Assembly (NCBI RefSeq): GCF_001870225.1
Contig: NZ_CP017675.1
Location: 1,517,953-1,581,952 of the forward strand
Length of the DNA: 64,000 nucleotides
From: Gloeomargarita lithophora Alchichica-D10
GTDB taxonomy: Bacteria; Cyanobacteriota; Cyanobacteriia; Gloeomargaritales; Gloeomargaritaceae
Direction: 5' to 3'
Shown: piece by piece, positions 8,942-61,182 of the stretch
How the letters are laid out: the number at the start of each line of letters is the position of its first letter
Numbering within the stretch: the first letter of the stretch is position 1
Position numbers and translations under genes: made by a program
The notes under the pieces: model-generated
What the model was told of the DNA's origin: nothing
Databases searched by the model: none
Seen by the model: the letters and a program-made list of their open reading frames with translations, nothing else

Positions 8942-9053
8942 AGGATACTTCTAAAAATGGGTCGCAGGGGCACTGCCCCCGTCCCTGGTTCTCGGTAATA
9001 TCTGTATTCCACCCAGATAACTTTTTGCTGGTGCCAATAGATAGAGGTGTCTT
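8942..9053. mobile_element. Small non-coding element, GGACA class (MITE-like)
   Basis: A 112-bp element with imperfect terminal inverted repeats: AGGATACTTCTA at the left and the complement of TAGAGGTGTCTT at the right. The body contains the shared core GGTCGCAGGGGCACTGCCCC and the class-specific segment CTGGTTCTCGGTAATAT...CCAGATAACTTTTTGCTGG. The same body recurs at 35405, 41501 and 61090. No coding capacity is evident. It lies between the GH63-like gene and a DUF29 remnant. Confidence 0.75.
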
Positions 9054-14912: not shown

Positions 14913-15032
14913 TAGCAATCCCACTCGATTAACGAACAAATATTCAGAAGAACCAAGTACGGGGGGTGCCCCCCTGCGACCGCTATTCTCATAGCGTTAG
15001 CGTGGCGTAGCCATACCCAATTAGGATTGCTA
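14913..15032. mobile_element. TATAGCAATCC-class MITE with TA target duplication
   Basis: A 120-bp element bounded by perfect inverted ends TAGCAATCC and GGATTGCTA, flanked by TA on both sides (14911-14912, 15033-15034). The body carries AACGAACAAATATTCAGAAG, AGAACCAAGTACGGGG and the shared core GTGCCCCCCTGCGACCGC. TA duplication is the pattern of IS630/Tc1-mariner elements. It has no coding capacity. It directly abuts a partial element of another class at its right end. Confidence 0.85.
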
Positions 15033-15110
15033 TAGCTAAGTAGGGTAAGGTTGTCGCCTCAAGATTCTGGGAAATGCGGGGCTACGCCCTGCGACCGCTA
15101 ATTGTCAATC
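15033..15110. mobile_element. Partial TATAGCTAAG-class element abutting aroA
   Basis: From TATAGCTAAG at 15031 the sequence follows the complete copy at 60673 (GTAAGGTTGTCGYCTCAAGATT, then GCGGGG...GCCCTGCGACC, then TGTCAA), but the right inverted repeat is absent. Similarity ends at the aroA stop codon at 15110-15112. It appears to have inserted at the terminal TA of the neighbouring TATAGCAATCC element and later lost its end. Confidence 0.65.
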
Positions 15111-17460: not shown

Positions 17461-17492
17461 CACCGAGGTTTCCTAGAATTAAAAAAGCACTA

Positions 17493-17589
17493 TAGCAATA
17501 TGACACGATTTACGAACAGAAATTCCACAGAACCAAGGGCGGGGGCGGTGCCCCTGCGACCGCTATTCTAAACCCAATTAGGATTGCTA
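17493..17589. mobile_element. TATAGCAATCC-class MITE, tandem copy 1
   Basis: A 97-bp element starting TAGCAATATGACACGATT and ending GGATTGCTA, flanked by TA at 17491-17492 and 17590-17591. It is shorter than copy 2 because it lacks the segment CCTGCGTGGCGTAGCCATTTG. The core GGGGGCGGTGCCCCTGCGACC is intact. Confidence 0.85.
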
Positions 17590-17591
17590 TA

Positions 17592-17709
17592 TAGCAATCC
17601 CACCCGATAGCCTGCGTGGCGTAGCCATTTGGCGAACAAATATTCAGAAGAACCAAGTACGGGGGCGGTGCCCCTGCGACCGCTGTTCAAAATTGAATTA
17701 GGATTGCTA
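17592..17709. mobile_element. TATAGCAATCC-class MITE, tandem copy 2
   Basis: A 118-bp element with perfect inverted ends TAGCAATCC and GGATTGCTA, flanked by TA. Its left TA (17590-17591) is the same dinucleotide as the right TA of copy 1. It contains the GTGGCGTAGCCATT segment also seen at 15001 and 24301. It ends 26 bases upstream of the Uma2 gene and may carry or displace its promoter. Confidence 0.85.
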
Positions 17710-17735
17710 TAATCCCCAACGCTCAAGGTAAAACC

Positions 17736-20517: not shown

Positions 20518-21513
20518 TTAATTCACCACCCGGCCATCGGGCATGGTGGCACCGCTGAGGTTGGCTCCCGTGAGATTGGCACCGCCGATGTCGGCCTTGA
20601 GCAGGTTGGCTTGGCTTAAATCCGTATCCCGCAGGTCGGCTTTGGTGAGGTAGGCTTCGTGGAAGACGGCTTTCAGCATCTGGGCTTGGCGCAGGGTAGC
20701 CAAACTCAGGTCGGCTCGGGTGAATTTCGCCTCGCTCATCTGGCAACGCAGGAACACGGCTTTGCTGGCCTTGGCTTCGGTGAGGTTGGCCAGACCCAGG
20801 CGGGCATCGGTAAAATCCGCTTCAATTAGCACGGCACGCACCATCTGCGCCTGGTGGAGTTGGGTGCGATTGAGAATGGCTTCGCTCAGGTCGGCATCGT
20901 TGAGGTTGGCCTCGTGCAAAATGGCGTTGCTCAGGTTGGCATTGGCCAGGTTGCTGTGGAGTAACTTGGCACCCTTGAGGTTGGCCCGGCGCAGGTCAGC
21001 CCAGCACAGGTCAGCGCCCTGTAAATCCGCTCCCTGCAAATCCGCACCCTGTAAATCCGCCCGCCGCAGGTTCACCCGCTCACCACCTTTGCGGGGGGAA
21101 CTCAGGTTGGCCTGCCGCAGACAAGCCCCCCGCAGGTTGGCACTGGAAAGATTGGCTCCCCGCAGGTCGGCTTCCACCAGGCTGGCATCGAGGAAATTGG
21201 CAAAAATGCCATTGGTGCGGGACAGGTTCGCCCGGTAGAGGACACTGCCGTGGAGTTGTGCCGTGTTTAGGTCACTGGCCGCCAGGTTGGCCTGGGCGAG
21301 ATAGGCACCGCTCAGATTGGCATTGTTGAGTTTGGCTCCCTGCAAATTTACCCGGCTCAGGTAGGCAAACACCAGTTCAGCCCCGTGCAGGTCGCACCGG
21401 GACAGGTTGATATTGATCAAATCCGCCTGATTGAGGCGAATCCCCCGCAGGTCTTCCCCAGAGAAATCATTTTTGCCTTCGCTATAGCTTTGCAGGAGTT
21501 CCGCCGCATCCAT
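20518..21513 (-). CDS. Pentapeptide-repeat protein
   Basis: A 331-residue protein made almost wholly of A(D/N)LXX repeats forming a right-handed quadrilateral beta-helix, for example LQGADLQGADLQGADLCWAD. The first 25 residues (MDAAELLQSYSEGKNDFSGEDL) are the cap. There is no signal peptide, so it is probably cytoplasmic. The start is two bases after the stop of the preceding 380-residue protein, indicating one operon. Such proteins are abundant in cyanobacteria and their roles are mostly unknown. Confidence 0.9.
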   Translation of the reverse strand: MDAAELLQSYSEGKNDFSGEDLRGIRLNQADLININLSRCDLHGAELVFAYLSRVNLQGAKLNNANLSGAYLAQANLAASDLNTAQLHGSVLYRANLSRTNGIFANFLDASLVEADLRGANLSSANLRGACLRQANLSSPRKGGERVNLRRADLQGADLQGADLQGADLCWADLRRANLKGAKLLHSNLANANLSNAILHEANLNDADLSEAILNRTQLHQAQMVRAVLIEADFTDARLGLANLTEAKASKAVFLRCQMSEAKFTRADLSLATLRQAQMLKAVFHEAYLTKADLRDTDLSQANLLKADIGGANLTGANLSGATMPDGRVVN

Positions 21514-34623: not shown

Positions 34624-35417
34624 CGGAGTATAGCAAAAAATTCTTTGCTGACATTCGAGATGACTATGCCTTTTTTGAAGCCCATACCACCGAATTTGAC
34701 CGAGATTTATACCACTATCAACAAGCCATCTCGCAATTTTCTATACCTGAAACCCCCTTAAAATTCCTAGATTTTGGTTGTGGTACAGGCGTATTTACAT
34801 CACGATTTTTAGATGGACTGAATTTTCCTCCCCAATCCCTAGAAATTACCTTGATTGAACCCGATGAAGTCTATCGTCAAAATGCGGTTAGTGTCCTATC
34901 TAATTATACCCAATTTCCCATAGAAAATTTTTCTTGTTTACCAACGGAAATCCCTAGACCATTTCACCTGATTCTGAGTAATCATGTTCTCTATTATGTC
35001 CCTGATTTATCCAGCACTATAAACCAATTGCTCCAAGCTCTTCACCCCCAAGGGATATTACTGATGACTATGGCAGGAAAAGCGAATATCATTAGTCAAT
35101 TCTGGCAAAAATGTTTTGATTGGTTAGGAAAGAAAATCCCCTACTATCTAGCTGAAGATTTGATGGCTATCAGCCAGGATTTATCTCTCATTTATCAGCG
35201 ACAAACGGTGACTTATGAGCTGCGTTTTCCAGATACAATCGAAAACCGTTGGAAACTCCTGCGTTTCATGTTAGGCAATCATCTCGAACAACTGACTGAA
35301 TATAATCTACCCGCTTTGTTCGACCCCTATAGTTTCCAGAGTCAGATTGACATCACCACATCCCATTATCAATTCCTATTTCAATCTCCAGAATTGATGG
35401 CCTCAGAACACCTCTAA
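34620..35417 (+). CDS. Class-I SAM-dependent methyltransferase
   Basis: A 265-residue methyltransferase with motif I LDFGCGTGVFTSRFLDG and the block FHLILSNHVLYYVPDLSSTINQLLQAL followed by HPQGILLMTMAG. The substrate is unknown. It overlaps the upstream pentapeptide gene by four bases (ATGA). The DNA is AT-richer than most of the window. The stop codon TAA (35415-35417) and the last two or three codons lie inside the terminal repeat of a GGACA-class mobile element, so the original C-terminus may have been longer or different. Confidence 0.85.
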   Translation: MTEYSKKFFADIRDDYAFFEAHTTEFDRDLYHYQQAISQFSIPETPLKFLDFGCGTGVFTSRFLDGLNFPPQSLEITLIEPDEVYRQNAVSVLSNYTQFPIENFSCLPTEIPRPFHLILSNHVLYYVPDLSSTINQLLQALHPQGILLMTMAGKANIISQFWQKCFDWLGKKIPYYLAEDLMAISQDLSLIYQRQTVTYELRFPDTIENRWKLLRFMLGNHLEQLTEYNLPALFDPYSFQSQIDITTSHYQFLFQSPELMASEHL

Positions 35418-35532
35418 AAATAGGTCATAGGGGCACCCCCCGGCCCAGAAGCACCTGCGGTGTATGATTTTCGGCAATATTGGTATTCCAGTGAAATAAC
35501 TTGCATTTGATTCGCATAAATGGAAGTGTCCC
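35405..35532. mobile_element. GGACA-class MITE supplying a gene's stop codon
   Basis: A copy of about 128 bp: left end AGAACACCTCTAAAAATAGG, the core GGGGCACCCCCCGGCCCAG (diverged), then GATTTTCGGCAATATTGG and CAGTGAAATAACTTGC, right end GGAAGTGTCCC (inverted to the left end). The left repeat contains the TAA that ends the methyltransferase gene. The body is more diverged than the copies at 8942 and 41501, so it is probably an older insertion. Confidence 0.7.
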
Positions 35533-40516: not shown

Positions 40517-40588
40517 CTGGGGTGCAAGGATTCGAACCTCGGAATGGCTGGACCAAAACCAGCTGCCTTACCACTTGGCGACACCCCA
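40517..40588 (-). tRNA. trnQ: tRNA-Gln (anticodon TTG)
   Basis: A 72-base cloverleaf. The acceptor stem is TGGGGTG paired with CACCCCA, with discriminator G. The D arm contains GCCAAGTGGTAAGGC, the anticodon stem GCTGG/CCAGC encloses the loop TTTTGGT (anticodon TTG), and the T arm is CGAGG-TTCGAAT-CCTTG. CCA is not encoded. The UUG anticodon reads glutamine codons. Confidence 0.95.
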
Positions 40589-41331: not shown

Positions 41332-41500
41332 GATATGAAGCTCCTGAAGGATGAATATCCTTACTTTAAGAAGAAAAATTCCGGGTGAACGTGACAAGCA
41401 TCACCGAGAACCCCTAAAATCGAGCCGATTTCCTGTCTTTTTTGCCATTGACGCTGAGGGTAAGTGATTGTTTTGTGCCACAACCGGCTGAGAAACTTAA

Positions 41501-41614
41501 GGACACGTCTAAAAATAGGTCGCCGGGGCACCGCCCCCGGACTTGGTTCTCGATAAATATGGACATTCCAGCGAAATAACTTTCTGCGGGTTCAAATAGA
41601 TAGAGGAGTCCGAA
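41501..41614. mobile_element. GGACA-class MITE upstream of cpcG, with 12-bp direct repeats
   Basis: The best-preserved copy of this class: left end GGACACGTCTAAAAATAGG, core GGGGCACCGCCCCCGGACTTGG, then CATTCCAGCGAAATAACTTTC, right end TAGAGGAGTCC (inverted to the left). The 12-base sequence TGAGAAACTTAA occurs directly before it (41489-41500) and directly after it (41615-41626), consistent with a target duplication or insertion between repeats. It ends 88 bases before the cpcG start, in the likely promoter region. The rest of the gap 41332-41488 shows no gene. Confidence 0.8.
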
Positions 41615-41702
41615 TGAGAAACTTAACATTGCGTTACTTTTGGCGCCTGGGGGGAACCCCTTGACCTACGCTAAAGGAAGCCCCTGATTGGAGTTGGTTA
41701 CC

Positions 41703-42467
41703 ATGACTTTGCCTTTGCTCGCCTACCGACCCACCACCCAAAACCATCGGGTACGGACTTTTGGCCGCGCCGAACTGAACGAAGACAGCCCCCGGATTTA
41801 TCGCTTGGAGAATGTGGGCACCCCCGATGAAATGAACGGGCTGATTTGGGCGGCCTACCGGCAAATTTTTAGCGAACACGTGATCCTCAAATCCTGTCGT
41901 CAAGTCACCCTGGAATCCCAGTTAAAAAATCGGGCAATTACCGTGCGGGACTTCATCCGGGGTTTGGCACAATCCAATCCCTTTTACCGGCTGGTGGTGG
42001 CGACGAATAATAACTATCGCTTGGTAGATGTGTGTTTACGGCGGATTTTAGGCCGTCAAGCCTATAATCAAGCTGAGGAAATCACCTGGTCAATCCGCAT
42101 TGCCACCCAGGGATTTAATGGTTTGGTGAATGAACTGGTGGACAGCGATGAATACACGGAAAATTTCGGTGACAATACCGTGCCCTACCAACGGCGCCGC
42201 ATGGAGGGTCGTCCCTTTAATTTGGTCACGCCCCGCTATGGCAGTGACTACCGGGCGAAAGTGGGCATTGGTCAAATTGACTGGAACCATGTGCTGATTC
42301 GTTACTACCAAAAACGGGCGCAGGAACGCATCCAAATGTTCCCCCAAGCCGGTGACCCGGAGCAGTACCGCACCCTGGCCCGTCGGGTGGAAACCCGCCC
42401 CCAATCCAACCCGGCGGTGACAGTAAAGGAATTGGACTTCCTGGCCAAGGTTCCCCGGCGGCGTTAG
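41703..42467 (+). CDS. cpcG: Phycobilisome rod-core linker CpcG
   Basis: A 254-residue linker that attaches phycocyanin rods to the allophycocyanin core of the phycobilisome. The N-terminal half is a Pfam00427-type linker domain ([95 protein letters not shown]). The C-terminal part (about 190-254) is basic and not obviously membrane-spanning, so it is CpcG1-like rather than the CpcL type. The ATG at 41703 is favoured over an upstream TTG. It overlaps the next gene by one base. A MITE lies in its promoter region. Confidence 0.95.
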
Positions 42468-58580: not shown

Positions 58581-60440
58581 ATGGCTGTATATATCCCGCT
58601 CCACCATAAATATCGCCCCCAAACCTTCGCCCAACTGGTAGGCCAGGAGGTCATCCGCACCACCCTGGGTAATGGGGTACGCACGGGACGGATTGCCCCC
58701 GCCTATATGTTCACCGGGCCGCGGGGTACGGGTAAAACCTCCTCCGCCCGCATTCTTGCCAAAGCCCTGAATTGCCTAAGTGGGGATGCTCCTACCCCGG
58801 AACCCTGCGGGGTATGTTCCTTGTGCCAAGCGATTACCCAAGGGAATGCCCTGGATATTATCGAGATTGATGCCGCCAGCCATACGGGGGTGGACAATGT
58901 GCGGGAAATGATTGAGCGGGCGCAATTTGCTCCAGTCCAAGCTCGGTACAAAGTATTTATTATTGATGAATGTCATATGCTTTCGGGAGCGGCGTTTAAT
59001 GCCCTCTTAAAAACCTTGGAGGAACCGCCGGAGCGGGTAGTATTTGTCCTGGCAACGACTGACCCCCAACGGGTACCCGCCACGATTATTTCCCGGTGTC
59101 AACGGTTTGATTTTCGCCGCATTGCCCAGGCGGACATGGAAGCCCATTTGCGCCAGATTGCCGAGCGGGAAGGGATTGCGATTACCCCGGCGGCCTTGAC
59201 CTTGGTGACCCAGTTGGCGCAGGGGGGTCTGCGGGATGCGGAAAGTCTGCTGGATCAACTGAGTCTGCTCACCCCGCCGATTCAGCCGGAACAGGTGTGG
59301 CAGTTGGCGGGACGGGTGCCGGAGCGGGATTTGCTGGACTTGGTGCGGGGGATTTATTCGGAGTCTTTGATCACGGTCTTGGAACGGGGACGGGCTTTGC
59401 TAGAAAGGGGTTGGGAACCCCTGCAACTGTATCAACAACTGGTGGGCTTTATCCGGGATGGGTTGATTGCATTCACCGCCCCGGAGCAACGGCATTTAAC
59501 CGCCCTGATGGCCGATACCTGGCAAGAATTGCGGGCGTTGGGGCAAACAGTCACCCCAGAGAATTTACTCCAAGCCCAGGACTATCTACGCCAGAGTGAA
59601 TCCCAGATTCGCCATACCACCCAACCCCACCTGTGGTTAGAGGTGGCTTTGTTGGGCTGGTGGCATCTGTGCCAAGGGAAATCAGGGACGGCCATCCCCG
59701 CCGCTGTGGTTCAACCTCCGGCTTCCCGCCTGTCTAGGAGTCAGGGTGGGGGGACTGTTACGCCTTCGTCTGTTCCAGCGATTAATAAATCTGCACCGAC
59801 AACGCCTTCGTCTGTTCCAGCGATTACTTCACCTGCACCGGCAATATCTTCATCTAGCCCAGCGATTACTTCACCTGCACCGGCAATATCTTCATCTAGC
59901 CCAGCGATTACTTCACCTGCTTCAGCAACGCCTTCATCTGCCCCGGATCAGATAGAGTCAGACCCCATCAAACTTTGGGCAGAGGTGGTGGCGCAAATCA
60001 AAAAACCAGCCACCCGTTCTTTGTTTCAAGATGCAACCCTGGTTGCCTGTGCCAATCAGCAGGCGGAGATTGCCCTCAAGTCTCCGGCGTTATTGCAAAA
60101 TGCCCAGGGAAAAATCAAGGATGTGCAGGCGGCCTTTAAGCAGGTTCTTAAACAAACCATCACCATTACGCTCACTGCGCCCAAGGGTGAACCCCCCAAT
60201 GGGACACCGGTGACCGTTATCCATCCATCGGTTGTTAATACGCCGGTCAGTACCCCAAACCATACACCTGCGCCCATTCATCCCCCCCCTGACCCGGTGG
60301 TGGCTCCGTCCCTACCCCCGCAACGCCCGTCTTTACCTGAAATTCCCAGCGAGGATGGGGTGATGGTGGCCGCCCAGCGCTTGGCCGACTTTTTCCAGGG
60401 GGAGGTGATTGTGCCTGCGGAGGAGAACGAGGATTTCTAA
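58581..60440 (+). CDS. dnaX: DNA polymerase III subunits gamma/tau
   Basis: A 619-residue clamp-loader ATPase. Walker A is GPRGTGKTSSARILAKALNC near 44, a zinc-binding set of cysteines follows (C63 region to CGVCSLC near 80), the Walker B/DExx is DECHML near 128, and sensor 1 is LATTDPQRVPATI. The tau-specific C-terminal half is Pro/Ser/Thr-rich and contains a 42-base (14-residue, PAITSPAPAISSSS) tandem repeat of about 2.8 copies. No intein interrupts the ATPase, unlike some cyanobacterial dnaX genes. No programmed-frameshift slippery site was assessed. Confidence 0.96.
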   Translation: MAVYIPLHHKYRPQTFAQLVGQEVIRTTLGNGVRTGRIAPAYMFTGPRGTGKTSSARILAKALNCLSGDAPTPEPCGVCSLCQAITQGNALDIIEIDAASHTGVDNVREMIERAQFAPVQARYKVFIIDECHMLSGAAFNALLKTLEEPPERVVFVLATTDPQRVPATIISRCQRFDFRRIAQADMEAHLRQIAEREGIAITPAALTLVTQLAQGGLRDAESLLDQLSLLTPPIQPEQVWQLAGRVPERDLLDLVRGIYSESLITVLERGRALLERGWEPLQLYQQLVGFIRDGLIAFTAPEQRHLTALMADTWQELRALGQTVTPENLLQAQDYLRQSESQIRHTTQPHLWLEVALLGWWHLCQGKSGTAIPAAVVQPPASRLSRSQGGGTVTPSSVPAINKSAPTTPSSVPAITSPAPAISSSSPAITSPAPAISSSSPAITSPASATPSSAPDQIESDPIKLWAEVVAQIKKPATRSLFQDATLVACANQQAEIALKSPALLQNAQGKIKDVQAAFKQVLKQTITITLTAPKGEPPNGTPVTVIHPSVVNTPVSTPNHTPAPIHPPPDPVVAPSLPPQRPSLPEIPSEDGVMVAAQRLADFFQGEVIVPAEENEDF

Positions 60441-60510: not shown

Positions 60511-60842
60511 CTAAGGTGAGCGGTGGCTAGTATCCTCGGCATCCCCGCCAGGGTCTCTTGCCCGTTGGCCCCAACGGGTTGTTAGAGCGGTTTTTGGTGG
60601 CAAACTGACAACTTCTCTTCCACCTTCTGACTGTCTTTTTTGCCAGTCTGCAAACATGGCATCTAAGTCATATAGCTAAGTAGAGTAAGGTTGTCGTCTC
60701 AAGATTTCGGAAAACCAATGCGGGGCGGTGCCCTGCGACCCATGTTATTATGTCAACCTTTACGTGTTTAGCTATAGTTAAAAGACTTGGCGTGTTCTTC
60801 ACGAATCCTCTGAATTTCATCTAAAATCTCGTTTTGCCCCAT
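60511..60842 (-). pseudogene. Small antitoxin gene split by a MITE
   Basis: The 5' part (ATG at 60840-60842) reads MGQNEILDEIQRIREEHAKSFNY and then hits a stop inside a mobile element (60673-60774). Directly beyond the element the frame continues YDLDAMFADWQKRQSEGGR then EVVSLPPK. Removing the element plus one TA copy rejoins the halves without any frame change. The restored protein matches the small cyanobacterial partner of PIN-domain toxins. After LPPK the frame runs into an unrelated tail to the stop at 60511. A hairpin CCCGTTGG/CCAACGGG (60561-60578) lies in that tail and might act as a weak dnaX terminator. Confidence 0.75.
60673..60774. mobile_element. TATAGCTAAG-class MITE inside antitoxin gene
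   Basis: A complete 102-bp copy with ends TAGCTAAGTAG and TTTAGCTA, flanked by TA at 60671-60672 and 60775-60776. The body contains GTAAGGTTGTCGTCTCAAG and GCGGGGCGGTGCCCTGCGAC, the core shared with the other classes. The TA duplication and clean rejoining of the host gene prove its boundaries. A partial second copy is at 15033. Confidence 0.9.
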
Positions 60843-61064: not shown

Positions 61065-61066
61065 TA

Positions 61067-61182
61067 TAGCAATCCTAATTGAGTTTAGAACAGTGGTCGC
61101 AGGGGCACCGTCCCTGGTTCTCGGTAATACTTACATTCCAGCGAAATGACTTTCTGCTGGGGCAAATAAATTAGAGATGTCC
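61067..61182. mobile_element. Hybrid element at the broken end of the PIN toxin gene
   Basis: The left end TATAGCAATCCTAATTGAG then GTTTAGAACAGTGGTCGCAGG is the complement of the right half of the TATAGCAATCC class. The right part (CCTGGTTCTCGGTAATAC, CATTCCAGCGAAATGAC, TTAGAGATGTCC) is the right half of the GGACA class. They join within the shared core. No clean target duplication is seen, consistent with a deletion or recombination that removed the 5' part of the toxin gene. Confidence 0.7.

What the first reader, a model, noticed from the sequence alone, without database searches (positions are those of the whole stretch)
41489..41626. GGACA-class element with 12-bp direct repeats in the cpcG promoter region
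TGAGAAACTTAA flanks the element on both sides (41489-41500 and 41615-41626). If this is a target duplication it is unusually long and shows that this class uses a different transposase from the TA-targeting classes. The element sits 88 bases before the start of the phycobilisome linker gene, so it could alter its expression.
Basis: partly seen in the sequence, partly recalled or inferred. Interest (0 to 1): 0.52.

Follow-up and report, generated by a model that had tools for sequence, protein, structure and literature searches.

The report
Small transposon copy beside cpcG
A 111-base parasitic DNA element of a very common kind in this cyanobacterium sits just upstream of a light-harvesting gene; its family normally duplicates 4 bases when it lands, so the 12-base repeat around this copy is a local oddity, not the family's signature.

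Summary
The 12-mer TGAGAAACTTAA is present twice, as described. The element itself is 41501-41611 (111 bp; ends GGACACGTCTA / TAGAGGAGTCC), one copy of a MITE family with at least about 150 copies in this Gloeomargarita-type genome. The family's target duplication is 4 bp and AT-rich, not 12 bp: 32 of 115 own copies and 31 of 72 relatives' copies carry an exact 4-bp repeat, against 2.8 and 3.8 in shuffles. An occupied/empty pair inside an IS remnant shows it directly (TTAT). The window copy has no 4-bp repeat (TTAA/GAAT); its 12-mer is the exact part of a 15-bp repeat (13/15) abutting both ends. In two related genomes the site holds one homologous copy, so the repeat is a duplication tied to this insertion or its later history. 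One other copy (L014) shows the same with 27 bp (23/27). The element stops at the edge of a conserved HLR1-like (RpaB) box of cpcG and leaves it intact. Ordinary MITE, mildly unusual footprint; transposase not found.

The parts
41501..41611 (+). GGACA-class MITE copy, 111 bp, orientation of the family consensus
   Evidence: 47 blastn matches of the 41489-41626 query in own genome; family alignment and ends; 87% identical to the family consensus
41501..41511 (+). left terminal inverted repeat GGACACGTCTA (consensus GGACACCTCTA)
   Evidence: 407 sites with at most 1 mismatch in own genome versus 43 for the pattern read backwards
41601..41611 (+). right terminal inverted repeat TAGAGGAGTCC (consensus TAGAGGTGTCC)
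   Evidence: TAGARRTGYCC: 313 sites versus 6 for the backward control
41486..41500 (+). left copy of the 15-bp imperfect flanking repeat (12-mer 41489-41500)
41612..41626 (+). right copy of the 15-bp imperfect flanking repeat (12-mer 41615-41626); continuous with the conserved sequence upstream of cpcG
   Evidence: single homologous copy in G001 and G005
41523..41540 (+). GC-rich hairpin of the element core, terminator-like by pattern only
   Evidence: 1 found, 0.4 expected in shuffles; whole-element fold is not better than shuffles (z -0.96)
41623..41640 (+). HLR1-like box TTAACATT-GC-GTTACTTT (candidate RpaB site of cpcG); its first four bases TTAA are the end of the right repeat copy
   Evidence: 2 mismatches to the HLR1 consensus quoted in PMC11633204; both half-sites identical in 7 of 7 genus genomes while the 2-base spacer varies
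41703..42467 (+). cpcG, phycobilisome rod-core linker
   Evidence: PF00427, E 1.5e-45; CpcG4 chain 7eyd_A2 E 1.3e-92
8943..9052 (+). another full-length copy of the family in the window, 110 bp, no 4-bp repeat
35406..35531 (+). another copy with altered core, 126 bp

Best explanation
The feature is one copy of a non-autonomous miniature inverted-repeat element (MITE) of about 110 bp with 11-bp inverted ends (GGACACCTCTA). Inferred: a DDE transposase acting in trans recognised those ends and inserted the element into AT-rich targets. Shown: the family's insertions duplicate 4 bp. At cpcG a copy lies at the upstream edge of a conserved HLR1-like box, within TTAA. This copy lacks the 4-bp repeat and instead has a 15-bp duplicated flank (13/15, including the exact 12-mer), which arose with the insertion or by a later local rearrangement. 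It is not a different duplication rule for the class. The HLR1-like box and everything downstream remain intact, so a strong effect on cpcG is not expected (inferred).
For: Copy number and ends. 4-bp rule: 32 of 115 own copies (2.84 expected, maximum 8 in 300 shuffles) and 31 of 72 relatives' copies (3.80 expected, maximum 10) have an exact repeat of 4 bp and no longer; 3 and 1 have 5 bp; no copy has exact 6-8 bp. Direct empty site: the IS5-like remnant L137 reads GATCTTATGTAAAA, its near-identical partner L133 reads GATCTTAT-MITE-TTATGTAAAA. Single homologous copy of the repeat at the cpcG site in G001 and G005, each window copy differing at one base from their CGACTGAG. TA class contrast: 39 of 52 flanked by TA on both sides, 1 of 52 with a 4-bp match.
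Against: 61 of 115 own copies have neither an exact 4- or 5-bp repeat nor 3 of 4 matching, so many copies are old or rearranged and the rule rests on about half of them. Similar long flank repeats exist at a few other copies (L014, L050, L129), so this case is not unique. No autonomous partner with these ends was found in three transposase families (ends compared for L130-L159 only). In G001 and G005 the single copy has three extra A, so the exact 12-mer is not there.
Confidence: 0.86

Rival explanations
1. Origin A of the 15-bp repeat (compatible with the main reading): the usual transposase occasionally cuts the two target strands much further apart, 15 bp here and 27 bp at L014, giving rare long target duplications in one step.
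For: In both cases the repeat abuts both element ends (overlap score at least 10 in 2 of 115 own copies, 0.15 expected). The empty sites are single in relatives: 2 of 2 informative at cpcG and 5 of 5 aligned at L014. The last four bases of the left copies (TTAA, TTAT) are ordinary 4-bp targets of the family (one search list). The two copies differ by 13-15%, in keeping with old elements.
Against: Only 2 clear cases in 187, with different lengths; at L050 and L129 the left copy ends 14 and 4 bases before the element, which a single staggered cut does not give; DDE transposases usually make fixed-length duplications (recalled).
Confidence: 0.42
2. Origin B (also compatible): element and flank were duplicated in tandem (X-E-X-E or E-X-E-X) and one element copy was then lost between its short repeats, leaving X-E-X.
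For: Two-element tandem forms with identical spacers exist: L193 (E, 9 bp, E, 9 bp) and L223 in G001 (E, 54 bp, E, 54 bp); L013 has a larger tandem duplication.
Against: Needs two events, one of them a precise loss; no intermediate was seen.
Confidence: 0.33
3. One reading: the GGACA class as such makes 12-bp duplications.
For: The exact 12-mer at this copy.
Against: 4-bp duplications are the rule; none of 187 copies has an exact abutting repeat of 6-8 bp, and exact lengths of 9-16 bp were found in none of 74 own and 49 relatives' copies in the stricter set.
Confidence: 0.02
4. The direct repeat pre-dates the element (for instance a doubled regulatory motif) or is chance.
For: Left-flank homology with relatives beyond the repeat is weak, so the left copy's native context is not proven.
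Against: One copy in G001 and G005; the repeat ends exactly at the element; 5 observed versus 0.20 expected flank matches.
Confidence: 0.12

Closest known systems
Bacterial MITEs in general (review PMC10969869, passages read; Nezha of cyanobacteria appears there only as a reference, its details not read)
   Same: Short, non-coding, inverted ends, short target duplication, high copy number, often upstream of genes.
   Different: No autonomous parent found here; the GGACA ends were seen only in Gloeomargaritales in the one collection scanned (own genome may be left out of that scan).
TATAGCAATCC class of the same genome (TA duplication; resemblance to IS630/Tc1-type MITEs recalled)
   Same: Shares the GC-rich core GGTCGC...TTGGTTCT in 30 of 52 copies.
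   Different: Different ends and different duplication: TA on both sides in 39 of 52, 4-bp match in 1 of 52.
IS1202 family (PMC10132070, passages read)
   Same: A family in which short (3-5 bp) and long (16-28 bp) duplications both occur.
   Different: There the length separates subgroups of transposases and the ends begin 5'-TGT; here the ends begin GGACA and the lengths occur within one element family.
IS5 family, IS5 subgroup (recalled from ISfinder)
   Same: Ends starting GG and a 4-bp duplication are typical (recalled).
   Different: No transposase with GGACACCTC ends seen; the IS5-like remnants in the genome end in GGTCGTGTTGATC.

Membership tests
MITE | short interspersed multi-copy element | tested here: met
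   mostly 110-120 bp; 47 blastn matches with only 40 of 313 candidates scored; 313 end sites
MITE | terminal inverted repeats | tested here: met
   GGACACCTCTA / TAGAGGTGTCC; 11 of 96 listed pairs are perfect at both ends
MITE | short target-site duplication | tested here: met
   4 bp for the family; not met by this individual copy (TTAA/GAAT)
MITE | no transposase gene inside | tested here: met
   111 bp cannot encode one; ORFs over it are mechanical
MITE | autonomous relative with the same ends | tested here: inconclusive
   PF01609, PF13546 and PF13359 searched in 8 genomes; ends checked for the 30 PF01609 loci returned only; some own stretches are masked
IS630/Tc1-type TA-targeting MITE | TA duplication and TATAGC ends | tested here: not met
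   GGACA ends, 4-bp duplication
IS1202 family derivative | ends beginning 5'-TGT | tested here: not met
   ends begin GGACA; criterion from PMC10132070
IS5 family derivative | related transposase with these ends | tested here: inconclusive
   IS5-like remnants have other ends

The most novel reading that the evidence does not exclude
The transposition machinery of this MITE family has a rare second mode that duplicates 15-27 bp instead of 4, and the long-duplication insertions that survive are those in control sequences (the HLR1 edge of cpcG here, the ribosome-binding site and start of an ABC-transporter-like gene at L014), because the extra duplicated bases rebuild the signal downstream of the element.
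Probability: 0.18. Interest if true: 0.5.

Novelty: new member of a known kind. Interest (0 to 1): 0.3.

Why it matters
It replaces a tempting wrong rule (12-bp duplication) with the measured one (4 bp) for an abundant repeat family in Gloeomargarita, a lineage close to the plastid ancestor (recalled), and separates two MITE classes that share one core but use different ends and duplications. If rare long duplications are a real second mode, they would show how insertions into promoters and ribosome-binding sites can be survived.

Tried and rejected
RNA family: the only Rfam match in the window is a tRNA at 40517-40588. Structured RNA: the fold of the element with its repeats is no better than shuffles (z -0.96). 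Autonomous parent: long pairs of GGACA ends were sought in L001-L070 and the window; the pairs with readable ORFs enclosed what look like ordinary genes (by eye). PF01609 loci have ends CAGTAGTGTTGA, CAGAAGTGTTGA or GGTCGTGTTGATC. PF13546 gave none in 8 genomes. The PF13359 loci were not inspected for ends. Empty sites for L193 and L050: most relatives match only from about 89 and 72 bases or more into the queries, so the junctions could not be read. Literature: searches listed nothing whose title or abstract start names this family; only passages of PMC10132070, PMC11633204 and PMC10969869 were read.

Dropped rows: candidates with N near the element were left out, and 219 candidates fell to 187 after a similarity cut to the consensus, 21 of 187 with MITE-like flanks were left out. 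The 115 own copies are a sample (places listed), not all copies; the listed places lean to the first 1.8 Mb of the contig. Shuffle controls re-pair flanks of related copies, so their highest scores come at least partly from duplicated neighbourhoods.

Full report
What is there. TGAGAAACTTAA stands at 41489-41500 and 41615-41626. The sequence between is a member of an interspersed family: a blastn search of the window's own genome (3,049,282 bases, one contig) with 41489-41626 gave 47 matches although only 40 of 313 candidates were scored. Aligned with the other copies, the element runs from GGACACGTCTA (41501) to TAGAGGAGTCC (41611). The family consensus ends are GGACACCTCTA and TAGAGGTGTCC. 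Sites with at most one mismatch to the left end number 407 on both strands against 43 for the pattern read backwards, and TAGARRTGYCC gives 313 against 6, so at least about 150 elements are present (each intact element has two ends). The second 12-mer is therefore three bases (GAA) away from the element end; the repeat that abuts both ends is 15 bp with two mismatches.

The organism. The exact pattern GGRCACYTCTAAAAATRGGTCGC was found in 22 stretches of one collection of 84,980 species genomes, all in Gloeomargaritales cyanobacterium VI4D9 (the window's own record may be left out there). Of the 8 genomes of the family, 4 carry the element family (G000, G001, G005, G006) and 4 do not at E 1e-10.

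The duplication rule. Among 187 family-like copies (115 own, 72 from relatives), exact abutting repeats of 4 bp and no longer occur in 32 own copies (2.84 expected from re-paired flanks) and in 31 of the relatives' (3.80 expected); 5 bp in 3 and 1; exact 6, 7 or 8 bp in none. A further 19 and 13 copies match at three of four bases. In an earlier, stricter set of 74 own and 49 relatives' copies no exact repeat of 9-16 bp was found either. The 4-mers are AT-rich: ATAA 9, TTTA 7, TTAA 5, ATTA 4 and so on. A direct demonstration lies in the own genome: two near-identical IS5-like remnants, L137 uninterrupted (GATCTTATGTAAAA) and L133 with a family member inserted and TTAT on both sides. So 4 bp is the rule and 12 bp is not.

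The window copy. It has TTAA on the left and GAAT on the right, no 4-bp repeat. In G001 and G005 (CpcG 91% identical) the orthologous site has one copy, CGACTGAGAAAAAACTTAACATTACG, with three more A than the window's 12-mer. The left window copy (GGCTGAG) and the right one (GAATGAG) each differ from GACTGAG at one base, which fits a duplication of an ancestral 15-mer followed by one substitution in each copy. G006 has a different element beside the same box, and G002-G004 lack the TGAGAA part, so those four do not inform on the copy number. The homology of the left flank beyond the repeat is weak.

Is it alone? An overlap test anchored at both element ends finds score 10 or more in 2 of 115 own copies (0.15 expected): this one and L014, where 27 bp (23 of 27 identical) flank the element. 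At L014 five relatives have one copy of the region, and the right-hand copy carries GGGAGGTAATGGTTATG, the ribosome-binding site and start of the next gene (site assignment and the ABC-transporter-like reading of that gene are by inspection). A looser test without anchoring finds 5 of 166 copies at score 12 or more against 0.20 expected: L223, L014, L129, L050 and the window copy. L223, and L193 which was left out of that test, are tandem element-spacer pairs; at L050 and L129 the left copy does not abut the element. Long flank repeats are thus rare but real, of different lengths, and their origin is open between an occasional long staggered cut and tandem duplication with loss of one element.

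Relation to the TA class. Elements with TAGCAATCC ends in the loci examined (52) have TA on both sides in 39, a 4-bp match in 1, and share the GGTCGC...TTGGTTCT core in 30. No transposase with GGACACCTC ends was found, so the parent family remains unnamed.

Effect on cpcG. The gene at 41703-42467 is a phycobilisome rod-core linker (PF00427; among solved structures full-length CpcG chains match best over the whole protein). Directly after the start of the HLR1-like box lies intact sequence: TTAACATT-GC-GTTACTTT (41623-41640) matches the HLR1 consensus (G/T)TTACA(T/A)(T/A)NN(G/T)TTACA(T/A)(T/A), quoted in passages of PMC11633204, with two mismatches. In the window alone that is weak (4 matches at up to two mismatches, 1.06 expected). 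But both half-sites are identical in 7 of 7 genus genomes while the two spacer bases vary (GC, AC, GT), as expected of an RpaB site. It was not seen in the aligned upstream of G007. That paper's passages say RpaB bound upstream of start sites activates phycocyanin-associated genes in low light. The insertion ends at the edge of this box and the box is whole, so the likeliest effect is small (inference). The element carries a terminator-like hairpin by pattern only.

Verdict.

Noticed in passing
window 41623-41640: Conserved HLR1-like (RpaB) box upstream of cpcG, both half-sites invariant in 7 of 7 genus genomes with a variable 2-base spacer.
   Followed up: partly
window 17483-17710 and 61065-61182: TATAGCAATCC-class elements share the GC-rich core of the GGACA class; 61065-61182 looks like a hybrid with a TATAGC left end and a GGACA-class right end.
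   Followed up: partly
L073 and L074, upstream of cpcG: G005 has a TATAGC-class element and G006 a reversed GGACA-type element in the same short gap before the HLR1-like box: the spot seems to have been hit three times independently.
   Followed up: partly
L014 1478-1641: Family member with a 27-bp flank duplication (23/27) that carries the ribosome-binding site and start of the downstream gene; single copy in five relatives.
   Followed up: yes
L133 967-1160 versus L137: A family member inserted in an IS5-like remnant with TTAT on both sides; the other remnant is the empty site.
   Followed up: yes
L193 1-349 and L223 201-528: Tandem element-spacer pairs with identical spacers of 9 and 54 bp.
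   Followed up: partly
window 15031-15074 and 60671-60714: A further repeat family beginning TATAGCTAAGTAG, also seen in L133 and L137.
   Followed up: no
window 20583-21345: Short-period repeated sequence (15-bp steps), probably a pentapeptide-repeat protein gene (label recalled).
   Followed up: no
window 59764-59931: 42-bp direct repeats, probably inside a coding region.
   Followed up: no
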